Shown here in pieces: positions 1,469 to 36,559 of a DNA stretch of 64,000 nt. This stretch comes from Terriglobia bacterium (GTDB taxonomy: Bacteria; Acidobacteriota; Terriglobia; Terriglobales; Acidobacteriaceae): the NCBI GenBank assembly GCA_020073185.1, contig JAIQFT010000019.1, positions 1 through 64,000 of the forward strand. Reading direction: 5' to 3'. A program made the translations under genes and the position numbers. The notes beneath the pieces are model-generated. The model ran no database searches. It worked only from the letters and a program-made list of their open reading frames with translations, and was not told the DNA's origin. Positions within the stretch are counted from its first letter, which is position 1. Every line of letters begins with the position of its first letter.

Positions 1469-4400
1469 TCAGTGGGCCGACGCGCCGGGCTTGAGCGGAT
1501 CGTGTGGCAAGGTCTGATACCGGAACCGGTATTCCGACTCCGCCGCTCCCCAGTAAAAACGCGTGTTGTATTCGAGCAGGTAATGGATGTAGGACGCGTC
1601 GCGGGGCGAGCTTGCCGGCGCGTAGGGATATTCCGGCATGGCGTGGAAGGGCAGCGGTTCGACCGTCTGCCCGTCAGCGGCGTAGAAATCCATGTCCTTC
1701 TCGAAGCCGTCGGCGAAGAAAAAGAAGTCGCGCTTCCAGCCGGGCGGTAGCACGGGAAGCTTGGCGGGATCAAACTCCAGTTGCACCTCATCGCCGGAAC
1801 CGAAGACGACGTGGCGATCGTCCGCCGCCGACAGAAGTTCGCGCACCTCGCCCAGCCGAGTGTACGCGCCCGCCTGCCGCGCGTACGGTCCGGTGAGACT
1901 CACGTCTGCGTAGATATAGGAGAGGTCGCCGGGCGTGTTCCCTTCGATGGGACGCGGATAGCCGTGGAACGCAAGCTTCGCCTGCGCCAGCGGCACCTCC
2001 TCGGTGCGGACGGGAACGCCGGGCGCGGTGCGATCCACCAGGATCTGGTCCCAGTAAATCTGCAAGTTGGCGCCGATGCGAATGCGGCGCGTGCCAACGG
2101 GCAATTTGCCGGTGAGATCGGCCACCGTGGTACGCGAAAGACCGGCGGGGAAGCCCATGTCCTCGACGATTTTTTCCCAATGGCCTTCGGGATCGAGCGC
2201 TTCGACGTAGGGGGCCACCGGCGTGAGGCCCGCCTGGCCGGCGGCGTACATCGAGGTCGCCGTGAAGTATTCGATGTAGCCGTGCAGCAGCAGGCGCAGC
2301 GGACCGGATACATACGGCGCGCCCAAGTCCAGTTCCAGTGAATGCGGCTGAGTGAAGCCCTTGTAGGGAAGCAGTTCGAAGGCAGTGACGTAGCGGTGAT
2401 CGCGTTCGCGCAACACGGGTAGCACATCGCGCCCGCGATCATCCCATGCGCCCGCCGGTGGCCGCGCATTGTGGCTGGCGATGACCTTGAACTCCGGAAA
2501 CGGGGGATTCGAGGCGAAGTACTCGTTGGGATACACCTCGACGTCCGCGGGATGATCCACGGCGAGCAAGCGCACTTGGTCGAGGTACACCACTTCCTCC
2601 ATCGGCTCCATCAGGCGGAAGCGCAGCCAGCCGCCGCGCGCGGCGACGTGGCCGACCTTGATGTACTCCGTCGGATCCGGCGCATTGCGCTGCCCCGGCC
2701 CGATCCAGTGGCCAACCACGCCCGCGCCGATCATGTCGGCGACGAAGCGGTACCGGCTGCCGTCCCAGGCAAACAGCAAAGGACACGAGCTGCCGCGGCG
2801 GTCAATCTCATCAATCTTCGCCACGCCCGCGGCGACATTGACTTCGTCCTGCACCACCCCGGTGGGCCAGAGCAGGCGCAGCATATCGACTTGCTTCTCC
2901 CGGCCGATGCCGATGTCCACCGTGGTGACGCTTTGGCCGAGGTAGCTCGATCCGGTCACCTCGCGCTTCTGCCACAGGGTTCCGGCAAACGCTTCGAGCT
3001 TGGTGCCGACGCCTGTCTTGTTGTCTGCCAAGCCTTTTAGCGCCACTCGCAGCGATGAATTCTTATTGCCGCCGCGGTTGCGAAACAACACCGGTGAAAA
3101 TCCCCTGGCTTGCGTAACCAGGACGTCGTCAGCGCCATCACCGTTATAGTCCGCGATCACAATTGCGCGCGGGTTGGTGAGTTGAATTTTGTCAAGCCCG
3201 ACCTGTGCGGTGACGTCGGTGAACCCGTTTGCTCCGATGTTGCGCAGCAGGCGGATTTCCCCACGACCGTCCGCGGTCTCGCCAACAGCGACCAAGTCAA
3301 TCCAGCCGTCGTTGTCGTAGTCGAAAGCGGCAACACCCCAGGCGCGAGTCCAATGCATATCCGGGAGAGATACCGGCTCGAAGCGCTTACCCTCAACATT
3401 CCGCCACAGGGTCAACCCCGGCGCTGAGCGGTGCGTGAACGCCAGGTCCATCCAGCCGTCTTTGTTGAAGTCCAGTGCCGCCACGCCGACGACCGGCTCC
3501 ACCGGCTGTGACCACGGCTCGACCGGCTTGAACTTCCCTTCCCGGGGATTGACCATCATGCGCGGCGGTTCGCCGTCGGTCGCAACCAACAGGTCAATCG
3601 CCCGATCGTTATTGAAGTCGGTGGCGACAACAGAAAAGCCTGGACCACCACCGAGTCCGGTTTGTTCCGTCCATTCAGTAAAGGTTCCGTTGCCATTGTT
3701 GCGCCAGAGCTGGCTGTTGGAAACTTTCCCGGCGCTGCCTGTAACCGGATTGCCGGAGACGTACAAGTCCACATCGCCGTCGTGGTCGTAATCAATCCAC
3801 GCCAGACCGAATGGCGCGTGCGTGGCGCGAACGCCGCTGGTTTCGGTCACATCTTTGAAGGTACCGTTGTGCTGGTTGTGAAACAGGGCGAGGTGATCTT
3901 CGAAGCTGAGCGCAACATCGGTCCAGCCGTCGTTGTCGTAATCCGCAGCGGCGCAGCCAATCGCGTGAGCGCTCGGATCGAACCCCGCCGGGCGAGTCAC
4001 GTCGGCGAAACGCCCTCGACCGAGATTGCGAAGCAGTGTTAGCCCGCCCTGCGGACCGTTGTCACCGAGCAGAAGATCGGGGAGGCCGTCTCCGTCGAAG
4101 TCGAGGAAGCAAGCGCCGGAGTCGAAAGGATTCGGCGAGACTGGTTTGGCCGGTTTTGCCGTTGTAGCCAGCCCCGCTTCGATGGTCACGTAAGCAAAGC
4201 GCACCGGAATCGCCGGCGGCGCGGACTGCAGCAGGGCCTTGACCGGTTCCGCCAGCGAAAGCGGACCCTGCTCACCGTAAGCCTGTCCGACAACCGAGCC
4301 CAGCTTGTTGCGCGTGAGGTCCTGGAAGCGCGCCAAGTGTGGCTTGGCTTCTTCGGTTTCGTTCACACGCAGATAGGCCCGCGCCAGTGCGAACTCGGCC

Positions 4401-4933
4401 GAGGCATGAAACGGATCCAGCGCCAGCGCTTGCTGCAGCGCCGCAATCGCTTCCTGCTCGCGATGCAACTGCGAGTAGATGGCACCGAGGAAATAAGCGG
4501 TGTCGGCGTCTGCGGGGGCCAGCTTGGCGGCGCGGCGGAAGTCCTCCAACGCGGCCACGTCCTGCCCTTGCGCGCGATCCAACAGGCCGAGGTTGTACCA
4601 GGCCTTGGCGTGGTTCGGATCGCGCTCGACGATCCCCCGTAGCAACCGCCGCGCTGGCGAGAAGCGCTGCAAATTCAGCAGCGCAATGCCTTCATTCAGC
4701 CGCGACAATTCCAACTTGGGATCAAGCTGCTGCGCGCGCCGGAACACGCGCAGCGCATCCTCCAACCGCTGCTGGCCCATGTAGGCCACGCCGATGTTGT
4801 TCAGGCGCAATGCTTCGGCCCGCGGATTCACCTTCGGCGCGGGTTTTCGAGACTGCGCTACGGCGCTGCCCACCGCCAAGGCGGCGGCCAGCACGCACGC
4901 CAGCCACTTCGAACCGGGCGTCCGTTCCAACAA
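1469..4933 (-). CDS. TPR / FG-GAP (CRTAC1, UnbV) fusion protein with large C-terminal domain
   Basis: A 1154-residue exported protein. A signal peptide (residues 1-27) is followed by TPR helices (about 38-205), a beta-propeller of FG-GAP/VCBS repeats with DxDxDG calcium-type loops (about 275-620, for example DFDGDGLPD), an ASPIC/UnbV-like strand region (about 640-715, GSSYLGQS and WPTG), then roughly 430 residues I cannot assign to a family. That C-terminal part starts at a CPLLFAWDGSRYRF segment and is rich in aromatic residues. The gene starts 4 bp after the stop of the CRTAC1 gene upstream, so it is the last member of a three-gene unit. Function is unknown. Propeller and TPR parts suggest extracytoplasmic protein-protein contacts. 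Confidence 0.88.
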   Translation of the reverse strand: MLERTPGSKWLACVLAAALAVGSAVAQSRKPAPKVNPRAEALRLNNIGVAYMGQQRLEDALRVFRRAQQLDPKLELSRLNEGIALLNLQRFSPARRLLRGIVERDPNHAKAWYNLGLLDRAQGQDVAALEDFRRAAKLAPADADTAYFLGAIYSQLHREQEAIAALQQALALDPFHASAEFALARAYLRVNETEEAKPHLARFQDLTRNKLGSVVGQAYGEQGPLSLAEPVKALLQSAPPAIPVRFAYVTIEAGLATTAKPAKPVSPNPFDSGACFLDFDGDGLPDLLLGDNGPQGGLTLLRNLGRGRFADVTRPAGFDPSAHAIGCAAADYDNDGWTDVALSFEDHLALFHNQHNGTFKDVTETSGVRATHAPFGLAWIDYDHDGDVDLYVSGNPVTGSAGKVSNSQLWRNNGNGTFTEWTEQTGLGGGPGFSVVATDFNNDRAIDLLVATDGEPPRMMVNPREGKFKPVEPWSQPVEPVVGVAALDFNKDGWMDLAFTHRSAPGLTLWRNVEGKRFEPVSLPDMHWTRAWGVAAFDYDNDGWIDLVAVGETADGRGEIRLLRNIGANGFTDVTAQVGLDKIQLTNPRAIVIADYNGDGADDVLVTQARGFSPVLFRNRGGNKNSSLRVALKGLADNKTGVGTKLEAFAGTLWQKREVTGSSYLGQSVTTVDIGIGREKQVDMLRLLWPTGVVQDEVNVAAGVAKIDEIDRRGSSCPLLFAWDGSRYRFVADMIGAGVVGHWIGPGQRNAPDPTEYIKVGHVAARGGWLRFRLMEPMEEVVYLDQVRLLAVDHPADVEVYPNEYFASNPPFPEFKVIASHNARPPAGAWDDRGRDVLPVLRERDHRYVTAFELLPYKGFTQPHSLELDLGAPYVSGPLRLLLHGYIEYFTATSMYAAGQAGLTPVAPYVEALDPEGHWEKIVEDMGFPAGLSRTTVADLTGKLPVGTRRIRIGANLQIYWDQILVDRTAPGVPVRTEEVPLAQAKLAFHGYPRPIEGNTPGDLSYIYADVSLTGPYARQAGAYTRLGEVRELLSAADDRHVVFGSGDEVQLEFDPAKLPVLPPGWKRDFFFFADGFEKDMDFYAADGQTVEPLPFHAMPEYPYAPASSPRDASYIHYLLEYNTRFYWGAAESEYRFRYQTLPHDPLKPGASAH

Positions 4934-4937
4934 GGTG

Positions 4938-6629
4938 CTATTCCGATCGCTTGGAGTACTTGCGAGAAGATATTACGCCGCGGCCTTGCTGGATAGTAAC
5001 CGTCTGGTCGGCGGCGACGTTTTGCAGGCGGTCCACCTGCCCGCTGGGCCACTGCACTTCGACCTCGGAGGTTTGTGGATTGGCGCCCAGGCCGAAGGTC
5101 AGCACCAGCTCGCTTTGCGACAAGTAGCTGGAGCCGCTGCGCAGCATCTGCCACTGTTGGTCCTTGCCGGAATGCACGCGCACCACCGCGCCGATGCCGT
5201 CGCGATTGGATTTTGTTCCCACCAGTTTGACACGCAGGCTGTGGTTGGTGGCGCCGTCGTTGCGGAAGAGCACGGCGGGGCCGCCGTTGGTGGTGATCAG
5301 CAGGTCGAGGTCGCCGTCATTATCAATATCGGCGTAGGCGGCGCCGCGCGCAACCCGCGGCTTGTCAAAAGCGGCTCCCGCCGACGCCGCCACATCGGCA
5401 AACTTTCCGTTGCCGAGATTGCGGAACAGATGCGGCGGCTGGCGGTACTTGATGCGTTTCTGGATGCGCTCGATGTCGTTATCCAAGTGCCCGTTGGCAA
5501 CGAACATGTCCAGCCAGCCGTCGAGATCGAAGTCGAAAAAGAAGCAGCCAAATCCCAGCGTCAGCAGGCTGGCGCGCCCGACCTCGGAGCGCGGCGCTTC
5601 GTCGACGAACAAGCCGTTGCCCTCGTTGTGATACAGCGCCATCATCTGGTTGGAAAAATTCGTGATGATGATGCTGGGCCGCCCGGAGCGGTCGTAATCG
5701 GCCGCATCCACGCCCATGCCGGAGCGCGCCACACCATCTTCGCTGAAGGCAATCCCCGCGGTGGTGCCGTGCTCGCTGAAGGTCCCGTTGCGGTTGTTCC
5801 GGTAGAGTTTGTTGGGCTGGGTATCGTTGGCCAGCAGCAGGTCAGGCCAGCCGTCCTGGTCGTAGTCGAGCACCGCGACGCCGAGCCCCTTGGAATTCGG
5901 GTCGTGCAAGCCCGCCTTGGCGGTCGCGTCCTCGAACTTTCCGTGACCCAGGTTGTGCCACAGCCGCAGCGACGCTCCCTTGTACGACTCCGGCGTGCAG
6001 TACGACTTGTGCGTCCCGTCCATCGTGCAGAACAGGTCCTTTTCGGGCGACCATTGCACGTAGTTGGCGACCACCAGGTCCAGCAGTCCGTCTTTGTCGT
6101 AATCCACCCAAGCCGCGCTGGTGCTGAATTCCTGGATGCCCCACAAGCCGGCGGCGCGCGTCACATCGGTGAAGGTCCCGTTGCCGTTGTTGTGAAACAG
6201 CCGACTCTGGCCCACCGCGGTGATGAAGATGTCGTCGTAGCCGTCGTTGTCGTAGTCGCCCACCGCCGCGCCCATGCCGTACATGCTGACCGCCAGCCCG
6301 GCCTTGGCGGTCACGTCGCTGAACGTGCCGTTGCGGTTATTGTGATACAGCTTCAGCGTGGTCGCGGCGCGCCCATGTCCCGGCCAGGCCGCGCCATTGA
6401 CCAGCAGGATGTCGGGATAACCGTCGTTGTCGTAATCCAGGAATGCGCAGCCGGGGCCAAGCGTTTCCGGGAGATACTTTTTCCCGAAGGCGCCATTGTT
6501 GTGCACGAAGCGGATGCCCGCCTCTTGTGTGATGTCACGGAATTGAATTTGTCCCGGCTTGCTTTGCGCGACCGCCGAGGCCGCCAATGCCACTGCCGCC
6601 AGCACGCGCGCAGAAAGGATTTTCATCAC
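4938..6629 (-). CDS. CRTAC1 family protein (FG-GAP beta-propeller with UnbV/ASPIC domain)
   Basis: A 563-residue exported protein with a signal peptide ending near residue 22 (AASAVAQ). About seven FG-GAP/VCBS blades follow, each with DYDNDGY- or DYDQDGW-type acidic loops that probably bind calcium, then a C-terminal ASPIC/UnbV region with GSSYLSQSE and VQWPSGQVDRL. A loop near residue 195 carries two cysteines (FC...SYC) that could form a disulfide. The same two-cysteine loop occurs in the CRTAC1 protein at 12252-14060. The start codon overlaps the stop of the cytochrome gene upstream by 4 bp (ATGA), implying translational coupling. The biochemical role of this family in bacteria is not established. 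Confidence 0.9.
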   Translation of the reverse strand: MMKILSARVLAAVALAASAVAQSKPGQIQFRDITQEAGIRFVHNNGAFGKKYLPETLGPGCAFLDYDNDGYPDILLVNGAAWPGHGRAATTLKLYHNNRNGTFSDVTAKAGLAVSMYGMGAAVGDYDNDGYDDIFITAVGQSRLFHNNGNGTFTDVTRAAGLWGIQEFSTSAAWVDYDKDGLLDLVVANYVQWSPEKDLFCTMDGTHKSYCTPESYKGASLRLWHNLGHGKFEDATAKAGLHDPNSKGLGVAVLDYDQDGWPDLLLANDTQPNKLYRNNRNGTFSEHGTTAGIAFSEDGVARSGMGVDAADYDRSGRPSIIITNFSNQMMALYHNEGNGLFVDEAPRSEVGRASLLTLGFGCFFFDFDLDGWLDMFVANGHLDNDIERIQKRIKYRQPPHLFRNLGNGKFADVAASAGAAFDKPRVARGAAYADIDNDGDLDLLITTNGGPAVLFRNDGATNHSLRVKLVGTKSNRDGIGAVVRVHSGKDQQWQMLRSGSSYLSQSELVLTFGLGANPQTSEVEVQWPSGQVDRLQNVAADQTVTIQQGRGVISSRKYSKRSE

Positions 6630-9475
6630 TTGCCGCCGCCCCCATGCGCCGCATACCTCGCTACTTGCGCATGCTCGGCGTTGTAGGCGGACAGCACCGC
6701 AAGGGGCACGGACACGTGATCATGGATCGGCTGGCGCTCGTTGTTGTCCTCCGGATGCGTCCGCCGGTACGCGCCCGTGATCGCCTGCGATGACTCATCC
6801 GCCTTGAAACGCAGGTAGAGCATCTGTTCGCGCCGCGCGTCCGCCTCGTTCCCCAGCCCCTGATAGCACAGCATCAGGTTGTAGTGTGCCTGCAGGTCCT
6901 CCGGATCGATCGCCAGCACCGCCTGAAACTGCCCCACCGCTTCCCCGTACTTGCGCTGCAGAAACTGAACGCGGCCCAGGTCGTTGCGCGCCACGCGATC
7001 GCGGGGATATTGCGCCAGCACCTGCCGCAGATGCTTCTCCGCTTCGTCGTACTCGCCGACATTACGCAGCACCCGCGCGTAAAAATAATGCGCCGCCGCC
7101 AACTGTGGCTTCAGCGTCAGCGCCCGTTCCAGCACCTGGCGCGCGCGTCCCATGTCACCCTCCTGCACAGCCACGCGCCCAAGGTTCACCCAAGCATCCG
7201 CCTTGCTGGGATCAATCTCGGCGATCTTCTGAAACGCCGCACTCGCGCCCTTCAGATCGCCTTGCAGGAACAGGCCGATACCGTAATCGTTCCAGCGCGT
7301 CCAGTCATCGGCGAGTAACTGGGTTTGCGGACGCGGATTGGGCGCGCCGCGCGGCGCCACCCGCAGTGCCACCTCGTCTTCCGCCAGCGCCACGATGGGC
7401 AAGTTGGGGACGGACTTGATCTTTCCCGACACATCTGCCGTGCTGCCGGTGAACACCATGCGGCGATCGTCGTAATTGGGGGTGAATTGCGCCCCTTGCT
7501 GCTGTGGATCGGGAATCCCGGCAAAGGAAAACTGCGTGTTCCACCAGGAGAACTTGCGGTAGCACAACCGGGCATGCAGCTTGATCTCGCCTCCGGCGTT
7601 TTCCGGCACATGCAGCCGGAAGTGCACCGTATCCGCCGCGCCCGGCGGAATCAGGTGAACATACACCACCGCTCGCGCCGACCATGCGTTGCGCTTGTTA
7701 ATGGGATTGCCATTGCCGTCAACCAACAGGGCGCGATAGAAGTGCGCTCCCTTCTCCACCGGGCCGCGGCCGTTGTCTCCCACCATGCCGCTCCAGAACA
7801 GGACCTGGCCTTTGCTGTCGATGGCTTTCAACTCCAGCCAGGTGTCGTAGGCATCCACGGTGCCACCAGGGAAGAAGTGTCCCACAGTTCGCGTGCGCAC
7901 CACCACGTCCACGCGCATGGTGTCGCCGCGGCGCACTACGCCCCGCACGCGATTGAGCGGGGCCGTAACCGGCGCGGCTTCGAGGCCGGAGGGCGCAATG
8001 TTGGTTTCACTTTCTTCGCCCACGCCGAAGGTGGTTGCCATCTCGCTGGTGGGGCCGCCCGTAGCCTGCTCCGGGGGCAGCGCCGGAGACAGCGCGAAGA
8101 TGTCCACCGAGACAGATTTTTTCAGGAAATTCTCCACCGCGGCCAGTTGCGCGGCGTCTTGATTGGCAGTCGGCAGAGCGGTGTTGGCGGCGGCAAAGGC
8201 ATGCGAGCGAAGGATTCCCTTCACGTTCCCTGCCTCGTTCGACTTGACCGGCGGCATGTGGCAATCGGCGCATTGCGCCGGCTTCGGCGGATAGTAGAAC
8301 GAGCGCGCGCCCTGGCCCGACACGCCGCTCGCCTGCCAGTTGTCGTATTCGTTGAAGCCGCGGATCCAGCGGTAGTGGTTCACCGGCACATCGAGATGGA
8401 CCTTGTGGCAAGTTGAGCAGAACTCCGCCGTCTGGGTGCGCATGAAGGGCTTGAGAAATACCCGCCGGTGCGGTTCCGGGTTCAACTTCACCATGAAATC
8501 GTGTAGCGCGCGGACCACCGGATTCTTGCTCGCCGCCAAGTCGTGCAACTGCGGGTATTCCAGCAGGAAGTCGCCCTGCCCCATGGTGCTCTTTACCTTG
8601 GCGATGGAGTGGCACATCACGCAGCCCAGGCCCGCCTGCGCCTCCGGCTTATGAATGTTCCGCTTGATCGGGGTGTCCATCATGCCGCTGAATAGCACCG
8701 CCGGATCGTGACAGCCGCCGCACCACTTGGACGGCCGCGTGCCCACCACCTCCTGCATGTACTCGATACTCTTGCGGTACCACTGGTTGTTGAACGAGGA
8801 AAAATGGTGCGCCGAGCCGTACCACTGTTTGTAAATCGTCTCGTGGCAGCGTTCGCAGGCTCGCGATTCCAGGAAAAACTTGCCGGGAATCAGCTTGCCG
8901 TCGGCGGTCTGCGCCGAACTGGGGAAGAACGTGCCCTTGGGGCCGTCGCCCTCTCCGTCCATCGCCGCCGGCGCGGGACGGTTCTTGATGACGTGGCTGC
9001 GCAACCACTCTCCGTTGCGCCACGAGTAGCCGAAGCCGGAAATCGCCGCGACCGCGACAATACATATCGCGACACGAGCTACCGCTCCACCGGCCCCGGC
9101 AAACCAGCGGCGCCTTTCCCATCCATGCGCTGCCAGGGCCACAACCGCGGCCAGCGAAAGCAGGATGTGGAGGTACATCCAGTTCCACGCCGAGTGCGGC
9201 GTTCCCGTGAAAATCAGAAGCACGCCGAGAATTCCGCCGGCGCCGAACAGCGCCCACCCAGCCCAGGATAGCGCGCTCCATTCGCGAAAATGGCGCACCG
9301 CATACCACGCCAGCAGCACCATCGCTACTACGCCGGCAAGCACATGCAGCAGATCGATGGCCGGGTAAACCAGCGTGGGCGACGGGAACGTGTACAGGTA
9401 AACGGCGGAGAGAAACAGGAAAGCGACCAGCGCCGCCAGCACCGTGCGAACAGAATTAGGTCGCCTGACTGACAT
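6626..9475 (-). CDS. membrane multiheme cytochrome c with C-terminal TPRs
   Basis: A roughly 949-residue protein. Five hydrophobic segments lie within residues 10-150. Histidines sit near both ends of two of them (H44/H62 and H103/H117), as expected for b-heme ligation. A periplasmic region follows with five CXXCH heme c motifs (about 207-211, 252-256, 285-289, 353-357, 402-406) in a cytochrome c554-like arrangement (CERCHETIYKQW, CGGCH, CVMCH, CSTCH, CADCHMPP). A beta-rich region and TPR helices (about 720-885) complete it. It is the first gene of a unit with two CRTAC1 proteins. The ATG at 9475 is preferred, but in-frame GTGs at 9484 and 9493 are possible. The likely role is electron transfer across or outside the inner membrane. 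Substrate and partner are unknown. Confidence 0.88.
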   Translation of the reverse strand: MSVRRPNSVRTVLAALVAFLFLSAVYLYTFPSPTLVYPAIDLLHVLAGVVAMVLLAWYAVRHFREWSALSWAGWALFGAGGILGVLLIFTGTPHSAWNWMYLHILLSLAAVVALAAHGWERRRWFAGAGGAVARVAICIVAVAAISGFGYSWRNGEWLRSHVIKNRPAPAAMDGEGDGPKGTFFPSSAQTADGKLIPGKFFLESRACERCHETIYKQWYGSAHHFSSFNNQWYRKSIEYMQEVVGTRPSKWCGGCHDPAVLFSGMMDTPIKRNIHKPEAQAGLGCVMCHSIAKVKSTMGQGDFLLEYPQLHDLAASKNPVVRALHDFMVKLNPEPHRRVFLKPFMRTQTAEFCSTCHKVHLDVPVNHYRWIRGFNEYDNWQASGVSGQGARSFYYPPKPAQCADCHMPPVKSNEAGNVKGILRSHAFAAANTALPTANQDAAQLAAVENFLKKSVSVDIFALSPALPPEQATGGPTSEMATTFGVGEESETNIAPSGLEAAPVTAPLNRVRGVVRRGDTMRVDVVVRTRTVGHFFPGGTVDAYDTWLELKAIDSKGQVLFWSGMVGDNGRGPVEKGAHFYRALLVDGNGNPINKRNAWSARAVVYVHLIPPGAADTVHFRLHVPENAGGEIKLHARLCYRKFSWWNTQFSFAGIPDPQQQGAQFTPNYDDRRMVFTGSTADVSGKIKSVPNLPIVALAEDEVALRVAPRGAPNPRPQTQLLADDWTRWNDYGIGLFLQGDLKGASAAFQKIAEIDPSKADAWVNLGRVAVQEGDMGRARQVLERALTLKPQLAAAHYFYARVLRNVGEYDEAEKHLRQVLAQYPRDRVARNDLGRVQFLQRKYGEAVGQFQAVLAIDPEDLQAHYNLMLCYQGLGNEADARREQMLYLRFKADESSQAITGAYRRTHPEDNNERQPIHDHVSVPLAVLSAYNAEHAQVARYAAHGGGGK

Positions 9476-9580
9476 ATCTGCCACAACCCCCACAAATTGT
9501 CGGCTAGCTTATCCGCTGGGCAGAGGTCATGTCCAGCGCCGGCGGACCGCAGATCTATCGCGGAGCGAGTAACCGACGCT

Positions 9581-11017
9581 TCATTCGGTGCGTGCTTCGC
9601 GCGTCCAGGTCAGCGGAGGCGGCTGCCATCCGAACGCCTCTTCGATCACCGACGCCACTTCGAGTACTACCTCTTCCTCGTGGGGCCTGCCGATCACCTG
9701 CACTCCGATCGGCAGTCCTTCCGGCGACTTCGTCACCGGGACCACGGCCGCCGGCAGACCCAGCAGGTTGAACCACTGCGTGAAGCGCATCGTCACCAGG
9801 TAATTCGCCGGGTCGCCCTCGGTCCATCCGCCTTCGCCATGGCGGAATGCCGGGCCGCTCGAGACCGGCAACAGCAAAACCGGCCACGTCTCCATCTGCT
9901 GCAGGAAGCGCGCGCGCAACAAGTCGCGGTTGATCAACGCCGTCAGCAGCCGCTCGCCCGACATCGGGGGTTCCGCCGAAAAGGTCGCGAGAAAGCGCAC
10001 CAGCATCGGGCTCAGCTCGGCTTCGCGAGCCGCGGCCACGCCCCTCACCAGCATCGAACCCGCCTGGCAGAAGAATACGCGCCACAACTCGCCCGCTTCT
10101 TCCAATCCTTCCGGGCGGACGGACTCGACCGCCAAACCCGCGCGCTGAAGCGCGCTCGCGGCAGCGTGCACGGCGGCGCGAGTCTCCGCAGACGTGGTCC
10201 CCATCGCCTCGTCGGTCAAACATCCAATCCGCAAATGGCGCACCGTGCGGCGGTCCGCGGCGGCCGGGGCAAAGTTGGCGGACATGGGATCGCCGAGATC
10301 GTACCCACTCATGACGCTCAACATCAGGCGCAGATCGGCAACCGTCCGCGCCATGGGCCCAACCACGCCCAGGAAGGCGAACGGCCCCACGCAGGCGGGA
10401 AAATGCTGCGTCCCCGGAATCCGTCCCGGCGTCGGCTTCAGCCCGCAGATGCCGGTGAAATGCGCCGGCACGCGGATGGACCCGCCGCCGTCGCTGCCCA
10501 CTCCCGCCGCCACGCATCCCGCCGCAATGGCCGCCGCCTCGCCGCCGCTCGATCCGCCCGGCGTGCGCTGCAGATCCCACGGATTGCAGGTCCGGCCAGC
10601 GAGGACGTTATCCGTCTCGTAGGCCATCAGCAGCTCCGGCGTATTACTGTTGCCGAGAACAATGGCGCCGGCGCGTTTGAGCCGCGCTACCAGCGGGGCG
10701 TCAGTTTCGGCAACATACCCCGCCCGCAGCCGCGAGCCCGCCTCGCACCTCAGCCCGGCAACATCAATCGAGCTCTTGACACTGATCGGCACGCCAAACA
10801 GCGGCGGCAGCTCCGCACCGCGTATCAGGGCCGCGTCCGCTTCGGCAGCCTGCCGCGTGGCGCGATCGCCATCCACTGTGACGAACGCATTCAGCCGCGG
10901 CTGCAGTTCGTCGATACGTTTCAAGTGCGCCGATACCAACTCCAGCGGCGAGACCTTCTTTGTTCTTACCATCTGCGCCATTTCAGCGGCGCTCATCGTC
11001 GTCAGGGAAGTCGTCAA
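9581..11017 (-). CDS. amidase signature (AS) family amidase
   Basis: An amidohydrolase with a Ser-cisSer-Lys triad. With the start used here (478 residues) the triad is Lys81 (GVPISVKSS), cis-Ser156 (PGGSSGGEAA) and nucleophile Ser180 (GSDGGGSIRVP). The 24-residue spacing between the two serines matches fatty acid amide hydrolase. It resembles amidases that act on small or aliphatic amides, but the substrate cannot be told. The frame is open to an ATG at 11095, but those residues look unlike a protein N-terminus. A TTG at 11017 has GGAG seven bases upstream and gives an N-terminus matching the family. An ATG at 10996 is a third option. The gene stands alone. Confidence 0.9.
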   Translation of the reverse strand: MTTSLTTMSAAEMAQMVRTKKVSPLELVSAHLKRIDELQPRLNAFVTVDGDRATRQAAEADAALIRGAELPPLFGVPISVKSSIDVAGLRCEAGSRLRAGYVAETDAPLVARLKRAGAIVLGNSNTPELLMAYETDNVLAGRTCNPWDLQRTPGGSSGGEAAAIAAGCVAAGVGSDGGGSIRVPAHFTGICGLKPTPGRIPGTQHFPACVGPFAFLGVVGPMARTVADLRLMLSVMSGYDLGDPMSANFAPAAADRRTVRHLRIGCLTDEAMGTTSAETRAAVHAAASALQRAGLAVESVRPEGLEEAGELWRVFFCQAGSMLVRGVAAAREAELSPMLVRFLATFSAEPPMSGERLLTALINRDLLRARFLQQMETWPVLLLPVSSGPAFRHGEGGWTEGDPANYLVTMRFTQWFNLLGLPAAVVPVTKSPEGLPIGVQVIGRPHEEEVVLEVASVIEEAFGWQPPPLTWTREARTE

Positions 11018-11116
11018 GCGAATGCTCCGGAAGAACTGTGTTGGAACTGAGCAGACTACCGCAAACCTCGGCGACGCGGTACGCTTTGGTATCATGACGC
11101 GGTAAAGTGGTGCAAG

Positions 11117-11189
11117 CGCCGGGCTTCAGCCCGGCGAGACCGATGCCGCAACCGCAAAGGGGTTTAGCCCGGGTGGGCGAGGGCTAAAC
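11117..11189. repeat. REP-like pair of hairpins (copy 1)
   Basis: Two short inverted repeats between the amidase and TPR genes. The first, 11117-11136, has 9-bp arms around a 2-nt centre with core GGGCTTCAGCCC. The second pairs 11162-11170 (GTTTAGCCC) with 11181-11189 (GGGCTAAAC). The same GGGCTNNAGCCC-type core recurs near 19.25, 34.03, 46.1 and 49.6 kb, so this is an interspersed family rather than a gene-specific terminator. No T-tract follows. Confidence 0.7.
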
Positions 11190-11229
11190 TTCGCAGGGGT
11201 GTCGTTTGAGGACTTGCAGTAGGCGCGTG

Positions 11230-12255
11230 GTGACGCTGCTCAGGTGGGTTCCCTTCGCCGTCATTGTCCTGATTTCCACAGCCGCTCTGGCGCAAGAATC
11301 AGGGGCCACCCTGATCCAGCAGGGCCAACAAGCGCTCCGGGCCGAGCAATTCAACCGGGCTGCGGAAATTTTCCAATCCGCGGTGCAGCGCGATCCTGCG
11401 AGCAAGTCCGCCTATTCCGGGCTTCTGCTCTCCTGTCTGAAATCCAAGCGCGCCGCCGATGCCATTCGCGTGGGCACGCAAGCGGCCGAGCGCTGGCCCC
11501 AGGACGCCGATTTCGCTCACTACCTCGGCCTCGCCTACATGCAATCCGGCGACCTGCAGCAGGCCATCCCGCATCTGCAGCGCGCCACCACGCTGGCGCC
11601 GCGCGACTTCGACTCGCATTACGACCTGGCGCTCGCCTTCCTCGAGCAAAACCAGTACGGACCTGCAGCGGAACAACTGGAGCAGGCCGTGCACATCGAT
11701 CCTTCAGCGCCGCTGGCTCACATCCTGCTGGGGCGCGCCTGCCAGAACAGCAACCGCACGCTGGAAGCGGTAGAGCAGTTTCAAATCGCGCTCCGCCTCG
11801 ATCCCAAAATCCCGCTCGGCCACTACCATCTCGGTTTCGCTTACGGCAGCCTGGGGAGGAATCGGGAGGCCATCGCCGAATATGAAACCGAGTTGCGCGG
11901 CGGCAACCGCGATGCCGAGGTCTATTACCAACTCGCTCACCTGCAACTGGAACTGGGCAACCTGCAGGCTGCGGTTTCCAACGACCGTGCCGCCCTGGCA
12001 GTGAAACCGCGCGCCGACGCCAACTACGACCTTGGTAAAGCTCTCGCGCTGCTCGGCGAGACGCAGGCCGCACGCGAAGCGCTGGAGCGCTCCATCGCCC
12101 TCAACCCGAACGACCCCAGTCCGCACTACCAACTGGCGCGCGTGCTGGCTCAACTCAATCAGCGCCCTGCCGCCGAACAGGAAATGAAGCGCTTCGCCGA
12201 GCTGACCCAGGCCCAGCAGCGCGCCGGAGGCATGGCCTCGGGCCGGCTGCAGTGA
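11230..12255 (+). CDS. exported TPR protein
   Basis: About 341 residues. A signal peptide (hydrophobic stretch VPFAVIVLISTAALAQ) is followed by eight or so consecutive TPR units covering nearly all of the mature protein, each with the usual A/L/Y pattern and an NP or DP turn. No enzymatic domain is visible, so it probably acts as a periplasmic or surface scaffold. The frame is open from a TTG at 11206. The GTG at 11230, six bases after AGTAGG, gives the best signal peptide. Its stop overlaps the start of the CRTAC1 gene downstream (GTGA), so the two are likely translated together and may interact. Confidence 0.85.
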   Translation: MTLLRWVPFAVIVLISTAALAQESGATLIQQGQQALRAEQFNRAAEIFQSAVQRDPASKSAYSGLLLSCLKSKRAADAIRVGTQAAERWPQDADFAHYLGLAYMQSGDLQQAIPHLQRATTLAPRDFDSHYDLALAFLEQNQYGPAAEQLEQAVHIDPSAPLAHILLGRACQNSNRTLEAVEQFQIALRLDPKIPLGHYHLGFAYGSLGRNREAIAEYETELRGGNRDAEVYYQLAHLQLELGNLQAAVSNDRAALAVKPRADANYDLGKALALLGETQAAREALERSIALNPNDPSPHYQLARVLAQLNQRPAAEQEMKRFAELTQAQQRAGGMASGRLQ

Positions 12256-14060
12256 CCACCCACGCTCACCTGTCATTCCGCAACGCGCACCTGACCGCAG
12301 CCGCCGTCCTGTTGCTGTGCGCCTTGCCGCAGTCTGCGCAAACCAAGTCCAAGCCATCGCATCCCATCAAGCCCGCTGCGGCTTCCGGCCGGTTGCGCTT
12401 CCAGGACATCACCCGCGCCGCCGGCATTGATTTTCAGCCCGCCTGCGGCACTGCCGACAAGCTCTACATCATGGATTCACTCTGCGGCGGCGTCGCCTTC
12501 TTCGACTACGACAACGACGGCTGGATGGACATCCTGCTGGTCAACGGTTCCACCCTCCCCGACCTCAAAGCCGACAAGTGCCACGCCTCCAAGCTCTACC
12601 ACAACAATCACGACGGCACCTTCACCGACGTCACCGCCCGATCCGGCCTGGCGCACTGTGGCTGGGGCTTTGGGGTGGCCATCGGCGACTACGACAACGA
12701 CGGCTGGGAAGACGTCTATATCACCGACCTCAAAGGCGGCGCGCTCTACCGCAACAATCGCGACGGCTCCTTCACCGATGTCACCGCCAGAGCCGGCGTC
12801 GGCAACCACGGCCAGTGGGGTACCAGCGCGGCATTTGGCGATTACGACAACGATGGCTACCTCGACCTGTACATCGCGAATTACGTGGATATCGATCTCG
12901 ACCACCTGCCCGAATTCGGCAGCGGCATCTACTGCCAGTACCGCGGCATCCCGGTCTCATGCGGTCCCCGCGGCATGAAGGGCGCGCGCGATCGCCTCTA
13001 TCACAACAACGGCGACGGCACTTTCACCGACGTTTCCGAAACGCTGAACATCGATGCCGACCTCGGCTACGGACTCGGGGTGCTCTGGCTCGACTACGAC
13101 CGGGACGGCTGCCTCGACCTCTACGTGGCCAACGATTCCACGCCCAGCCTGCTCTACCACAACGATTGCCACGGCCACTTCCGCGAGGTTGGCGCCGAAG
13201 CTGGCGTGGCCTATAGCTGGGATGGCAAACTGCAAGCCGGGATGGGTGTTGATGCCGCCGACTACGACCATAGCGGGCTTCCCAGCATTGCCAAAATCAA
13301 CTTTTCCGACGACACCAACAACCTCTACCACAATGACGGCAAAGGCCAGTTCACCGACCGCGCCGGTCCCAGCGGCTTTGGTCCCGTCAGCATTCCGTTT
13401 CTTGGGTTTGGCGTCCGCTTTGCCGATTTCGACGACGACGGCTGGCCCGACATTCTGGTCGCCAACGGGCATGTGAACCCGCAGGTAGACAATTACAAGT
13501 TCGGAGTTACCTACCGCGAACACCCGTTACTTTTTCGTAACCTCGGTGGGGGCAGATTGGAGGAGGACGGACTCCGGGCAGGATCCGCGCTGGCGGTTCC
13601 GCGGGTCGGCCGCGGTCTGGCCGTTGCCGATTTCGAAAATACCGGCCGCCTCGGCGCGCTTATCACCGACTTGGCCGGCCCAGCCGTCTTACTGCGCAAC
13701 GTCGGGTCGGCCCACGGCCATGCGATTCGCATTAAGGCTGTCGGCACCCGATCTAATCGCGACGGCTTCGGAGCGCGCGTCGAGGTCCGCGCCGGCGACC
13801 TGGCGCAATCCGACGAAATCCGCGCTGGTAGCAGTTATCTGTCCGCCAGCGATCCACGCCTGCACTTCGGTCTCGGCCCCGCCACGCGGGCCGATATGAT
13901 CGTGATCCGATGGCCTTCCGGGTGGGTGGACACCATCCGCAACGAGTCCGCCGATCAGGAATTGACCATCCAGGAGGGCCGGGGCGTGATTGCCCGGCGG
14001 CCGTTTGCTTCCCCTGTCCCTGCCGCGCCGAAGACCCACCAACACCCGGTCCGCAAGTAA
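12252..14060 (+). CDS. CRTAC1 family protein (FG-GAP beta-propeller with UnbV/ASPIC domain)
   Basis: A 602-residue exported protein: signal peptide (about 1-30), a propeller of FG-GAP repeats with DYDNDGW and DYDRDGC loops (about 45-440), and a C-terminal ASPIC/UnbV region (about 480-575, GSSYLSASD and RWPSGWVDTI). A loop with two cysteines (GIYCQYRGIPVSC) matches the equivalent loop of the paralog at 4938-6629. It starts at GTG inside the stop of the TPR gene upstream. A TPR protein and a CRTAC1 protein thus sit together here as they do in the 1.5-9.5 kb unit, but without a cytochrome. The tail after UnbV is short and basic. Confidence 0.9.
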   Translation: MTTHAHLSFRNAHLTAAAVLLLCALPQSAQTKSKPSHPIKPAAASGRLRFQDITRAAGIDFQPACGTADKLYIMDSLCGGVAFFDYDNDGWMDILLVNGSTLPDLKADKCHASKLYHNNHDGTFTDVTARSGLAHCGWGFGVAIGDYDNDGWEDVYITDLKGGALYRNNRDGSFTDVTARAGVGNHGQWGTSAAFGDYDNDGYLDLYIANYVDIDLDHLPEFGSGIYCQYRGIPVSCGPRGMKGARDRLYHNNGDGTFTDVSETLNIDADLGYGLGVLWLDYDRDGCLDLYVANDSTPSLLYHNDCHGHFREVGAEAGVAYSWDGKLQAGMGVDAADYDHSGLPSIAKINFSDDTNNLYHNDGKGQFTDRAGPSGFGPVSIPFLGFGVRFADFDDDGWPDILVANGHVNPQVDNYKFGVTYREHPLLFRNLGGGRLEEDGLRAGSALAVPRVGRGLAVADFENTGRLGALITDLAGPAVLLRNVGSAHGHAIRIKAVGTRSNRDGFGARVEVRAGDLAQSDEIRAGSSYLSASDPRLHFGLGPATRADMIVIRWPSGWVDTIRNESADQELTIQEGRGVIARRPFASPVPAAPKTHQHPVRK

Positions 14061-14450
14061 GGCGGCGGCTGAATTGCGCCCGCTGATGTATTTACTTGTA
14101 AGTAAATTTACCTGTGTTGATGCCTCCCGCCATCCATTCCCATTTTGGTATGGGACAGGACTAGCAATATGGTTTTCTGTAGGAGCATCCCATCCCATCG
14201 GACCCAACTAGTTGATCCGCCTTGATTACGGGTTTGGGCAACAACGTGCCCTATTAAATGTCACTCAGGGGTGGGGTATTCCCGGTTAGTGACCAAATTG
14301 CTAATCTGCGAAGTGTTCTTCCCACCCAGCCAGGGCCCACGACTTAGGGTCCCAGTAATTTACTGGTTGTAAGCCGTTTGGTAGTGGGGTGCACGAACCA
14401 CTGAATAATCAGCAATTGTTCTCAATGTTGTTCACTTTCAGGGGGTTGCG
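14061..14450. other. 390-bp intergenic leader upstream of the TonB-dependent receptor
   Basis: No convincing ORF is seen. The region is less GC-rich than its flanks and holds the inverted repeat at 14091-14106. It ends in AGGGGG five bases before the receptor ATG, a good ribosome binding site. A long 5' leader or promoter region for the receptor is likely, but I could not assign -35/-10 boxes or a known riboswitch. Confidence 0.5.
14091..14106. promoter_or_regulatory. inverted repeat, possible operator
   Basis: TTTACTT and AAGTAAA are perfect 7-bp arms separated by GT. It lies 30 bp after the CRTAC1 stop and about 345 bp before the TonB-dependent receptor. The size and AT-rich symmetry fit a dimeric repressor site (TetR or MarR type), but no regulator gene is nearby and no second copy was seen. 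Confidence 0.3.
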
Positions 14451-17400
14451 ATGAGACTACCGTTTGGCCTAGGAAGGGTCGCATTTGCCTGCCTATTGGT
14501 TCTGCTGCTCACCACTATGTTGAGCCTTAGCGCTCTAGCTCAAATCCAGAACGGCACGGTGTCCGGAGACGTCACCGATCCTTCCGGCGCCGCCATCGCC
14601 AACGCCAAAGTTACCATCAAGAATCAGGCGACCGATTTCACCGCCACCGCCACTTCCAACCAGTCGGGCCACTTTACGGCCAACCAGGTGCCGGTCGGCG
14701 CCTACCGGGTGACGGTTGAAGCCCAGGGCTTCAAGTCGGAATCGCATACCAACGTTGTGGTGAACGCCGGTTCGATTGCGCACAACGACTTCAAGCTCCA
14801 GGTCGGCGCGGTCAGCGAAGTGGTGGAGGTTACCGGCGCTCCACCGGCGGTCAACACCGAGAGTTCCCAACTAGGACAGGTTGTGACCGGGACGCAGGTG
14901 GCCAACCTGCCACTCAACGGGCGCAACGTCTACGACCTGATCCAGATGGCCCCCGGCGCCGTCAACGTGCAGGGCGTGGTCATGGAAAACGGCCACGGCA
15001 CAGTGGTCAACGGCCTGCGCGAGGACTTCAATGGGTTTCTGGTAAACGGCGTCTCGAATAAGGGTTTAAGCGGCGGCGTGGTCAACGTTCCGATTCAGGA
15101 CACGGTGCAGGAATTCCAGCAGCTCACGCTCAACAACTCCGCCCAGTATGGCAGCAGCGCGGGCTCCATCACCAACCTGGTGACCAAGTCCGGTACCAAC
15201 TCCTGGCACGGCAGCGGCTGGGACTTCCTGCGCAGCGACAAGGTCGACGCCAACGAGTACTTCCTGAAGCAGCAGGGAGTGCCGAAGCCCAAGCTGCGCT
15301 TCAACCAGTTTGGCGGCACCTTGGGTGGGCCGATTATCAAGGACAAGCTGTTCGTCTTCGTCTCGTACCAGCAGGACCACTTCAACACCATCGCGCCGCC
15401 CATCACCACAACCATCGAATCGCCGCAATTCCGCGCTGCCGTAGCCAATACAGGGGCCTTGGCGAGCAGCGTGTCAAACCTGCTGTATAAGAACTTTGTG
15501 CCTTCGATCGCCGGCAGCAATTGCACCACCCTTACGCCAGCGGACGTGACGGGGCACGCAACCGGGGTCCCGTGGGTTGATGCCCGGCTCACGGCGCTGG
15601 CGGCATCCATTCCGGCGGGTGGAATCCCGTACGAGTGCGACAGCGTCGCCGTCTTTGGCACACAGGTGCAGACGATTGGCAACCTGTTCCAAGGCAAGGA
15701 AGCTTCGGGCAGAATCGACTATCAGCCCAGCGACCGCAACCGCTTCTTCATCCAGTACAACTGGCTGCGCGAAAGCGACACCTACGGCCCTTGCACTGCG
15801 GCCTGTTCGCGCGGCTTTACCAATCCGACGCGCAACATCTTTCCCACCGGCCAGGCTGTCTGGGATCACACTATCAGCTCCAACATTGTGAACGAGGCCC
15901 GTGTCGGCTATACCGAGAACAACACCGGCATTGGCACGGCACTGCCCGGCGTACCCTCGATTTACTTTGACGACGGTACCACTGGCTTTGGCTCCTACAG
16001 CGGCTACCCCCAAGTCTTCAAGGAACATCAATACAGCTACGGCGACATGCTTTCCATCAGCCACGGCAAGCACAACTTGAAGGTGGGAGTCGACATCAAG
16101 CGCAACATCGAGAACAGCGAGTTCAACATTGCTCGTCCTTCGTATGAGTTCTCTGACCCGGTGATGTTCGCGGTCGACGCTCCTTACTTCGAGACGGCAG
16201 GTACCGATCCGGGCTTCATTTCCGGCACCAATTCCGCCCAGTTGTTCGACAATTACCGCCACTGGCGCAACCTGGAAGTTGGCGCCTACTTCCAGGACGA
16301 CTGGAAGGTCAGCAAGACCTTGACCCTGAATCTTGGTCTGCGCTGGGACCTGTTCACCCGCCACGTTGAGCTGAACAACCAGCAGACGCAGTTCATCTAT
16401 GGTACGAGCACAACCCTTACCGGCGGCGACGTCTTTAAGAACGGCACGGCATTTGCCGCAGGACTTCAGTCGGCCAATACGCCGTGCATCACGGTAGCGC
16501 CGTTCAACAACCGCGGAGTGCTGGCGGGAGAGTGCGGTTCGGGCGGATTCGCCGCCGCGAATTCTCTCGGTTCCGGCGACCACAACAACTTCGGTCCGCG
16601 CGTTGGCTTTGCCTGGGACGTCTTCGGCAACGGCAAGACAGCGTTGCGCGGCGGATTCGGCGTCTCCTACGAGGGGACCCTCTACAACCCGCTGTCCAAC
16701 TCGCGTTGGAACCCGCCGTTCTACTCCTTCGGTGCGGCCGACGACGTGAACCTCGACGGCGGGAATGCCAACGTCATTTATGGCCCCATGGTCTGCACCG
16801 GCTCGCTCAACGCGCAGGCCGCCGGCCAATGCATGCCCAGCGGCGCGACCCCAACCTACCTAGGAGGGCCGACCGGCATCGGACAGGGCGTCGGCGTACA
16901 GGCCACCGGCAATATCAGCGGCTGGTATCCGGGGAACCCGGACTTCGCCAACCTGACCGGTATCGTGCCGAAGGACATCAAAGACCCCTACGTGTACAAC
17001 TACTATCTCAGCGTGCAGCATGAAATCCTGCCCAAGCTTTCGCTCGAGGTGGATTATGTTGGGACCCAGGGTCACAAGCTGTTCCGCGCCGACAACACCA
17101 ACCGAATCCCGGGTGCTCGCTTGCCGGTCGGAAGCTGCGTGACAGATAATATCGGACAAACCCTTTGTGGCTACCCGGGACACGTAATCAATCAGAACTA
17201 CGGGACACTGCGCACCTGGTTGAACGAGAACTATTCCAAGTACAACGCCCTCCAGGTCGCGGTGAAAAAGCAAACCAGCCACGGACTGTTGTTCAACCTG
17301 AACTACACCTGGAGTCACAGCCTGGATGATGGTTCCAGTTGGCATAGCGGTGCTACCACGGCGAATGCCGCAGCAGCCGGCGACTCTTACACTACCGAGT

Positions 17401-21425: not shown

Positions 21426-21431
21426 GCTGGC

Positions 21432-23393: not shown

Positions 23394-23456
23394 TGCAAGT
23401 GCGCTTTATTATATATGGTCGTGCGCGCCACGGGCGGCATGGAGCGCGCGCCGGGC

Positions 23457-24296: not shown

Positions 24297-24361
24297 GCGT
24301 CAGGTCTTTCGAGTTTGCAGGAACGGCAGTATAACGCGGTTTGTGCTAGCCTGACCCACTG

Positions 24362-30353: not shown

Positions 30354-30364
<11 letters not shown>
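29702..30364 (-). CDS. ctaE: cytochrome c oxidase subunit III
   Basis: A 220-residue inner-membrane subunit with about five transmembrane helices, lacking the first two helices of the mitochondrial type. The family motifs [27 protein letters not shown] and HALHVTIGV are present. Subunit III stabilises proton uptake in the oxidase. The frame is open to an ATG at 30388, but the TTG at 30364 is preferred. It has GGAGGT five bases upstream and gives [16 protein letters not shown], a natural N-terminus. The gene then overlaps the 3' end of coxA by 11 bp, suggesting coupled translation. Confidence 0.92.
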
Positions 30365-31982
<1,618 letters not shown>

Positions 31983-31996
31983 AGATAAAAATCGCC

Positions 31997-32998: not shown

Positions 32999-33001
32999 CG
33001 G

Positions 33002-33877: not shown

Positions 33878-33892
33878 GATTGCTCCAACTCC

Positions 33893-33965
33893 TTGGCGGT
33901 TGTCGGTTATCGGTGTTCGGTAGCCGGGTTCGCAATTGATCGATGACCGAAAACGATGACCGACA
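33893..33965. repeat. degenerate short tandem words (CGGTTATCGGT type)
   Basis: A run of imperfect 8-12 nt units such as GGTTGTCGGTTATCGGTG and, further on, two CGATGACCGA units. The same vocabulary occurs at 44348-44400. It is noncoding filler just upstream of sco. Confidence 0.5.
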
Positions 33966-33995
33966 AATAAATCCCACGCCAACTCCTAAGGAAAC

Positions 33996-34102: not shown

Positions 34103-34119
34103 CCCTCCCTAACTACTCA

Positions 34120-36552: not shown

Positions 36553-36559
36553 CTCGCCC

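What the first reader, a model, noticed from the sequence alone, without database searches (positions are those of the whole stretch)
1469..9475. Cytochrome-propeller module: b/c-type multiheme membrane protein coupled to two CRTAC1 proteins
Three minus-strand genes overlap or abut (4-bp overlap, then a 4-bp gap). The first encodes a membrane protein with five CXXCH motifs and His residues near both ends of two hydrophobic helices (H44/H62, H103/H117; the second pair has 13 residues between, as in b-type cytochromes), plus C-terminal TPRs. The next two are exported FG-GAP/UnbV propellers, one also carrying TPRs. Inference: quinol electrons could pass from b to c hemes toward an extracellular or periplasmic complex held by TPRs and propellers. 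I know of no described system with this composition.
Basis: partly seen in the sequence, partly recalled or inferred. Interest (0 to 1): 0.68.

Follow-up and report, generated by a model that had tools for sequence, protein, structure and literature searches.

The report
Acidobacterial membrane cytochrome with propeller partner
A soil-type bacterium carries a conserved gene module that pairs a membrane-anchored five-heme electron-carrying protein with secreted propeller proteins, a partnership kept in many different acidobacteria that probably moves respiratory electrons away from the cell membrane but that I found no study of.

Summary
Three minus-strand genes, A (6626-9493), B (4938-6629) and C (1469-4933), encode a membrane pentaheme cytochrome with TPRs, an FG-GAP/UnbV (CRTAC1-type) propeller, and a TPR/propeller with a conserved tail of unknown family. 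The module is conserved: B directly follows A in 55 of 57 testable loci, one per genus. A-B pairing also holds in a sister clade A' (9 of 11), and the two sets of B fall in one clade. C is looser: upstream or downstream of A-B, and often present without A.
The diheme-b inference needs correction. In 136 A sequences only one His pair is conserved (H50 134, H109 135); H68 (12) and H123 (11) co-occur only in the window. The full four-His pattern, at identical spacing, is conserved in A' (10 of 10 with the domain). The helices resemble heme-b cytochromes and the heme part T. tepidum cytochrome c552, neither decisively.
Best reading: a quinol-linked b/c electron-transfer protein with a dedicated CRTAC1 partner. 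Electron flow and the propeller's role are inferred. In eight chosen genomes c554-type genes cluster with UnbV genes (20 of 34, 1.15 expected). New variant of a known kind.

The parts
6626..9493 (-). Gene A: membrane pentaheme cytochrome with C-terminal TPRs, 955 aa (949 from the ATG at 9475)
   Evidence: single copy in own genome, other matches being TPR stretches only; AlphaFold2 pLDDT 83.7, pTM 0.82
8996..9454 (-). A, membrane domain of five predicted helices (four-helix bundle plus anchor helix)
   Evidence: VIA-align top rows are heme-b cytochromes, interleaved with unrelated TRPML1 rows; loop charges
9344..9346 (-). Codon of H50, invariant proposed heme-b ligand, periplasmic end of helix 2
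   Evidence: H in 134 of 136 A sequences; codon checked
9167..9169 (-). Codon of H109, invariant proposed heme-b ligand, periplasmic end of helix 4
   Evidence: H in 135 of 136 A sequences; codon checked
9290..9292 (-). Codon of H68, not conserved in A; same spacing as the conserved His of clade A'
   Evidence: 12 of 136 in A, 10 of 10 in A' with the domain
9125..9127 (-). Codon of H123, not conserved in A; conserved in clade A'
   Evidence: 11 of 136 in A, 10 of 10 in A' with the domain
8096..8983 (-). A, pentaheme domain, resembling T. tepidum cytochrome c552
   Evidence: profile E 2.9e-6 to 5ze8 over profile positions 44-137; Z 8.6 over 188 residues; Cytochrome_C554
8843..8857 (-). Heme motif 1 CERCH (CX4CH in several divergent relatives)
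8708..8722 (-). Heme motif 2 CGGCH
8609..8623 (-). Heme motif 3 CVMCH
8405..8419 (-). Heme motif 4 CSTCH
8258..8272 (-). Heme motif 5 CADCH
7355..7978 (-). A, beta domain with invariant H539 (GHFFPGGT), possibly Ig-like
   Evidence: strands in the model; H539 136 of 136 in A and 12 of 12 in A'; Ig-like identity not tested
6758..7312 (-). A, TPR superhelix
   Evidence: Pfam, fold search
6716..6745 (-). A, conserved C-terminal motif NxERQxIHxH
   Evidence: H924 in 60 of 60, 133 of 136 in A but 4 of 12 in A'
4938..6629 (-). Gene B: FG-GAP/UnbV (CRTAC1-type) propeller with signal-peptide-like start, 563 aa, the core partner of A
   Evidence: human CRTAC1 structure 9etn E 1.3e-23; conserved next to A; tree
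1469..4933 (-). Gene C: TPR + FG-GAP/UnbV protein, 1154 aa, looser partner
1472..2833 (-). C tail of about 450 aa, conserved, no Pfam family above cut-off and no PDB sequence match
12252..14060 (+). Third UnbV propeller of the genome, outside the clade of B; neighbour, not counted as part of the module

Best explanation
A is an inner-membrane, quinol-linked electron-transfer cytochrome. Its N-terminal bundle carries one heme b near the periplasmic face, held by H50 and H109 (two hemes b in the sister clade A'). Electrons pass from the quinol pool through this heme into five periplasmic c hemes, probably all bis-His, of the c552 type. The C-terminal TPRs dock the exported CRTAC1-type propeller B, and in many genomes also C, which either hold the terminal acceptor or link A to the outer membrane. 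Shown: domains, conserved His and heme motifs, conserved A-B pairing and co-inheritance. Suggested by comparison: heme-b-like bundle, c552-like heme domain. Inferred: heme b occupancy, quinol as donor, direction of flow, physical A-B contact, role of the propeller. Unknown: the terminal acceptor. In one genus and in clade A'' the membrane bundle is missing, so the core of the module is pentaheme plus propeller, and the b domain is one way of feeding it.
For: B follows A on the same strand in 55 of 57 genus loci with 2.5 kb or more downstream, 46 of them with a gap of 50 bp or less, overlaps included, and in 55 of 61 named GTDB loci, a set that shares some genomes with the first. A' keeps a B-like gene downstream in 9 of 11. 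B of A (38 of 38 sampled) and of A' (8 of the 9) fall in one clade, SH-aLRT 100, quick tree. H50 134, G54 134, H109 135 of 136; H-x17-H / H-x13-H in 10 of 10 A' with the domain. Loops after helices 2 and 4 are positive (mean K+R 2.30 and 2.62, against 0.06 and 1.32 on the other side). VIA-align: hydrogenase-1 cytochrome b Z 11.4 (3.2 A, 116 residues), superoxide oxidase 11.4 (3.8 A, 127), cytochrome b6 10.5, b561 10.2, FdnI 10.0. Heme domain: 5ze8 E 2.9e-6 over one stretch, Z 8.6, 4.0 A, 188 residues. Five invariant non-motif His in the heme and beta domains (H229, H342, H366, H431, H539; 60 of 60) for five hemes. c554 genes lie within 5 kb of UnbV genes in 20 of 34, expected 1.15.
Against: No Pfam cytochrome-b family matches the helices, in A or in the five A'-type proteins scanned. 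TRPML1 channel chains score Z 9.3-10.3 among the cytochrome rows, the tool warns that Z under about 13 may mean only a common arrangement for helical bundles, and Foldseek gave no hit under E 0.001. The bundle is absent in L095 (genus g68), in L188 and in clade A''. In A', H366 is kept in only 8 of 12, so one heme may be five-coordinate there. Both Poribacteria loci (L153, L157) have A without an adjacent B at the threshold used, and the KSB1 contig ends at A, so the pairing is shown only in Acidobacteriota. B- and C-type genes persist without A in L203 and L204. A'' pairs mostly with CRTAC1 genes of other clades.
Confidence: 0.45

Rival explanations
1. A is a periplasmic oxidoreductase with a catalytic five-coordinate heme; the propeller B is a structural or substrate-channel subunit, as propeller and cytochrome parts are in hydrazine synthase.
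For: 136 invariant columns among 42 same-class sequences (counted), more than simple electron carriage would seem to need; H366 not universal in A'; hydrazine-synthase homologues show c554 fusions and a CRTAC1-family neighbour (PMC12758564); related cable-bacteria pentaheme proteins are classed as potentially catalytic (PMC11976967).
Against: In A there are as many invariant extra His in the heme and beta domains as hemes; all five motifs are CXXCH or CX4CH in the sequences checked, apart from two single exceptions (L112, L175); the PDB matches are T. tepidum c552, of no clear function, and a weak MccSep match.
Confidence: 0.25
2. The N-terminal helices are only an anchor without heme; A receives electrons from other carriers, and H50/H109 serve structure.
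For: No cytochrome-b family match; bundle dispensable in g68 and A''; fold match not decisive.
Against: Two His and a Gly kept in 134-135 of 136 in an otherwise variable domain; A' conserves four His at cytochrome-b-like spacing (spacing rule recalled); top structural rows are heme-b bundles.
Confidence: 0.2
3. A belongs to a cell-surface or filament-forming branch of the c552/ExtKL/AvECN lineage used for long-range or extracellular electron transfer, with propellers as surface parts.
For: c552 is linked in print to ExtKL and the AvECN nanowire (PMC11976967); own genome has a separate MtrA/MtrB-like cluster.
Against: A is membrane-anchored; 7 of 8 genomes with A-family genes have no MtrB_PioB match; none of the 10 recurrent neighbours that I read looked like a porin.
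Confidence: 0.07
4. Neighbourhood by chance or by general clustering of repeat proteins, without function in common.
For: UnbV genes are numerous in some relatives (56 in G157); C also pairs with an amidase gene without A.
Against: Only 3 UnbV genes found in the own genome, all here; 55 of 57 adjacency; co-inherited clade; 20 of 34 against 1.15 expected.
Confidence: 0.03

Closest known systems
Thermochromatium tepidum pentaheme cytochrome c552 (5ze8) and the 'PHC family' (ExtKL, GSU2801, cable-bacteria sPHC/lPHC)
   Same: Five c hemes; profile E 2.9e-6 over one stretch and Z 8.6 over 188 residues to 5ze8; a beta domain follows the heme domain (family as described in passages of PMC11976967)
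   Different: A has a fused membrane bundle with conserved His, TPRs and a CRTAC1 partner; ExtKL and GSU2801 were not compared directly
CbcL-type inner-membrane quinol:cytochrome c proteins (cytochrome b fused to multiheme c; recalled, not compared here)
   Same: One chain proposed to carry both b and c hemes at the inner membrane
   Different: One conserved His pair instead of a diheme b; pentaheme part; TPRs; no Pfam cytochrome-b match
Membrane cytochromes b (HyaC, CybB superoxide oxidase, FdnI, b561)
   Same: Four-helix bundle resemblance, Z 10.0-11.4; A' keeps two His on each of two helices
   Different: A conserves only the periplasmic-side pair; no sequence relation detected
Hydrazine-synthase homologue clusters with a CRTAC1-family gene (PMC12758564, passages)
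   Same: Multiheme c554-type protein encoded beside an FG-GAP/CRTAC1-family protein
   Different: Those are hydrazine-synthase alpha/beta-gamma homologues; no hydrazine-synthase chain came up for A or B in the PDB searches
CRTAC1 (cartilage acidic protein 1, 9etn)
   Same: B is similar in sequence (E 1.3e-23) and carries FG-GAP and UnbV_ASPIC domains
   Different: Eukaryotic extracellular protein without a cytochrome partner that I know of (recalled)

Membership tests
c552/PHC pentaheme family | five heme c motifs | tested here: met
   60 of 60
c552/PHC pentaheme family | c552-like fold over the whole heme domain | tested here: inconclusive
   profile match covers positions 44-137 only; Z 8.6 stands among unrelated rows of like Z
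c552/PHC pentaheme family | Ig-like domain after the heme domain | tested here: inconclusive
   beta strands at 513-707 (M7 numbering) in the model; that part was not searched alone
c552/PHC pentaheme family | direct homology to ExtKL/GSU2801 | not tested
   sequences not fetched
Diheme cytochrome b | two bis-His pairs on two helices, conserved | tested here: not met
   for clade A: 12 and 11 of 136, both only in the window; for sister clade A' met in 10 of 10 with the domain
Diheme cytochrome b | four-helix heme-b bundle fold | tested here: inconclusive
   best rows are heme-b cytochromes but channel bundles score nearly as high; Foldseek found nothing under E 0.001
Diheme cytochrome b | match to a Pfam cytochrome b family | tested here: not met
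CbcL-like quinol dehydrogenase | quinol oxidation coupled to c heme reduction | not testable with these tools
   needs biochemistry
CRTAC1/UnbV_ASPIC propeller proteins (B, C) | FG-GAP repeats plus UnbV_ASPIC domain above Pfam cut-off | tested here: met
Hydrazine synthase | homology to hydrazine-synthase subunits | tested here: inconclusive
   no such chain among PDB matches of the A heme/beta profile at E 1 or of B at E 0.01; alignment with the homologues of PMC12758564 not done

The most novel reading that the evidence does not exclude
In Acidobacteriota CRTAC1-type propellers are dedicated electron-transfer partners of c554/c552-type multiheme cytochromes. The module here is a new class of respiratory complex: quinol to a p-side heme b, to five c hemes, to a TPR-docked propeller assembly, with the b domain differing between two hemes (A') and one (A) and lost in some lineages.
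Probability: 0.3. Interest if true: 0.75.

Novelty: new variant of a known kind. Interest (0 to 1): 0.56.

Why it matters
UnbV/CRTAC1-type genes number 3 to 56 in the nine acidobacterial genomes counted, and my literature searches listed no assigned function for them in bacteria. A repeated, co-inherited link to multiheme cytochromes gives them a testable role in electron transfer. Acidobacteriota are abundant soil bacteria, and a conserved b/c-type cytochrome of unknown acceptor in many of their genera points to a respiratory branch that I have not found described.

Tried and rejected
Diheme b in this protein: rejected for clade A on conservation, kept for A'. Whole-model fold search: TPRs filled the list, so the first 460 residues were folded alone. 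Porin partner: of the recurrent neighbour clusters I read ten representatives, none looking like a porin; MtrB_PioB was found in 1 of 8 genomes, the own one, on another contig. In family f1 all 13 genomes with A at E 1e-200 or better have C (tail E 1e-80 or better), but 24 further f1 genomes have C without such an A, and in 5 of the 6 such loci fetched C lies beside an amidase gene. Promoter-like sites: 0 found; terminator-like sites: 9 against 8.8 in shuffles. MtrC/F, NapC and NrfB-like membership: weak Pfam matches only, not pursued. Literature: 10 searches, of which I saw the listings; passages were read in three papers: PMC12758564, PMC11976967 and PMC3174227 (which only lists ASPIC/UnbV proteins among paralogues). 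None was seen to describe this module.

Rows dropped: L080, L155 and L167 (truncated) before the His counts; 10 of 158 sequences were removed as identical. The B tree used 110 of 185 distinct B-like sequences, keeping about one in three of those next to A, by the quick method. The A tree used 63 rows. B counts need a match of 300 bits, C counts 120 bits anywhere in the stretch on A's strand, and gene starts are the first possible ones, so some overlaps are overstated. One search treats genes as independent, its positions were copied, and its eight genomes were chosen by me because they hold A-family genes. A (6 of 42) minor misjudgement by my script on upstream or downstream was put right by using gene midpoints; one search's arrangement counts are not used.

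Full report
What is there. The three ORFs of the finding are confirmed on the minus strand. B (4938-6629) and C (1469-4933) are FG-GAP/UnbV propeller proteins with signal-peptide-like starts (by eye); C also has N-terminal TPRs and a conserved tail of about 450 aa that matches no Pfam family above its cut-off and no PDB sequence. The A/B overlap is 4 bp with B's GTG start or 1 bp with its ATG; the B/C gap is 4 bp. A is single copy in its genome. In that genome three UnbV_ASPIC genes were found, all in the first 14 kb of this window.

Conservation. In 299 genomes of the same class, 214 have a match to A without TPRs at E 1e-20 or better; some of these, above all in the own family, are weak and belong to the distant A'' form. 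In 60 loci taken one per genus, B follows A on the same strand in 55 of the 57 with at least 2.5 kb downstream, 46 of them with a gap of 50 bp or less and 24 with exactly a 4-bp overlap. C is linked in 38 of the 50 loci with enough flank on both sides: 17 downstream (A-B-C, as here) and 21 upstream (C-A-B). The named carriers are Acidobacteriota of several groups, plus two MAGs labelled Poribacteria, one labelled KSB1 and one labelled Acidimicrobiia, the last possibly misassigned. Against the pairing: neither Poribacteria locus has an adjacent B at the threshold used, and the KSB1 contig ends at A.

Deeper relatives. A phylum-wide search (79 of 396 genomes at E 1e-60) showed a second clade, A', 32-41% identical over the aligned length, with pentaheme and TPR parts and, in 10 of the 12 loci fetched, the membrane bundle; L186 is cut by its contig end and L188 has a single helix. 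A B-like gene lies downstream on the same strand in 9 of the 11 loci with downstream DNA. A third form, A'', 27-33% identical and without the bundle, occurs in the own family and has one to three CRTAC1-type genes upstream in 5 of 7 loci. In a quick tree of B-like proteins, all 38 sampled B next to A and 8 of the 9 downstream of A' (the ninth was not in the tree) fall in one clade (SH-aLRT 100), apart from most other CRTAC1 proteins, including the window's third one and the partners of A''. A is one clade (99) in its own tree. So the A-B pair seems to be older than the A/A' split, while A'' has a similar but separate pairing.

General association. In eight genomes chosen for their A-family genes, 20 of 34 Cytochrome_C554 loci lie within 5 kb of a UnbV gene, against 1.15 expected; without the A family it is 10 of 24 against 0.93. 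Genes were treated as independent, so the P values are only a guide. A published case points the same way: homologues of hydrazine synthase, some with c554 fusions, lie beside a 'CRTAC1 family protein' gene (PMC12758564, passages read).

The b-heme question. In 136 distinct A sequences H50 is kept in 134, G54 in 134 and H109 in 135. By exact spacing, H68 is present in 12 and H123 in 11, and both together only in the window's own protein, as often as chance would give (0.97); allowing one residue either way changes this to 14, 14 and still only the window. H50 and H109 lie at the same ends of helices 2 and 4, and positive loops follow the other ends, so both His are near the periplasm. This supports one heme b at most for clade A. 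In A', all 10 sequences with the domain have His at exactly the window's four spacings (17 and 13 residues between). Structure: AlphaFold2 models of A (pTM 0.82) and of its first 460 residues (pTM 0.80). VIA-align ranks heme-b cytochromes first for the bundle (hydrogenase-1 cytochrome b and superoxide oxidase Z 11.4; b6 10.5; b561 10.2; FdnI 10.0), but TRPML1 channel chains reach 10.3, the tool warns about helical bundles at such Z, and Foldseek gives nothing under E 0.001. No Pfam cytochrome b matches. The bundle is missing in L095, where C ends directly upstream of A (the four other genomes of that genus match only from residue 127-148 on), in L188, and in A''.

The c hemes. All five motifs are present in 60 of 60 genus-level sequences. 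In seven divergent sequences, among them Poribacteria and KSB1, the first is CX4CH; L112 and L175 each lack one motif. Five further His of the heme and beta domains are invariant in A (H229, H342, H366, H431, H539), enough for five bis-His hemes, but the ligand assignment is inference. In A', H366 is kept in 8 of 12. The heme domain resembles T. tepidum pentaheme cytochrome c552 by profile (E 2.9e-6, over profile positions 44-137 of 569) and by fold (Z 8.6, 4.0 A, 188 residues, among unrelated rows of similar Z). PMC11976967 (passages read) places that protein with ExtKL, GSU2801 and cable-bacteria pentaheme proteins and notes that c552 has no clear functional role.

Mechanism. I favour a quinol-linked inner-membrane b/c cytochrome that hands electrons to a periplasmic pentaheme domain, with the TPRs docking the propeller B and often C (confidence 0.45). 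The main rival is a catalytic cytochrome with a structural propeller subunit (0.25). Against a strict three-part complex: in the own family 24 genomes have C without a strong A, besides 13 of 13 with both; C then lies beside an amidase gene in 5 of 6 loci fetched, and two such loci also keep a B-clade gene near C (L203, L204). The core is A-B.

Verdict. A real and conserved module that the searches made did not find described; known kinds of parts in a new combination.

Noticed in passing
own genome, L213 (G000:C18:33000-50000), 6287-17002: A cluster with a ten-CXXCH MtrA-like protein, an MtrB_PioB porin, two large multiheme proteins (19 and 11 CXXCH), a cytochrome-b-like membrane protein and a NapC-like protein (names other than the porin by eye): a likely outer-membrane electron conduit. 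The porin was found in none of 7 other genomes tested.
   Followed up: partly
window 11206-14060 (+): A TPR protein overlapping the genome's third UnbV propeller gene, on the other strand from the finding's genes; it falls outside the clade of B.
   Followed up: partly
L199-L204: In genomes without strong A, C lies beside an amidase gene in 5 of 6 loci; an amidase gene is also upstream of A in the window (9581-11095).
   Followed up: partly
L145, L148, L153, L157, L158, L172, L174: The first heme motif of A is CX4CH instead of CXXCH in divergent relatives.
   Followed up: no
window 30354-41594: A terminal-oxidase and quinol:acceptor cluster (oxidase subunits and a molybdopterin/iron-sulfur protein resembling alternative complex III; by eye, not searched).
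   Followed up: no
window 19329-26323: Three sulfatase-like (alkaline-phosphatase superfamily) proteins with C-terminal TPRs close together (by eye).
   Followed up: no
L208 (G072, listed as same genus) 7904-9877: A remote relative with helices, four CXXCH and no propeller neighbour in the stretch (25% identity); G072 has no closer match to A.
   Followed up: no
G157 whole genome: 56 UnbV_ASPIC matches in one 6.2-Mb genome, a large expansion of unknown purpose.
   Followed up: no
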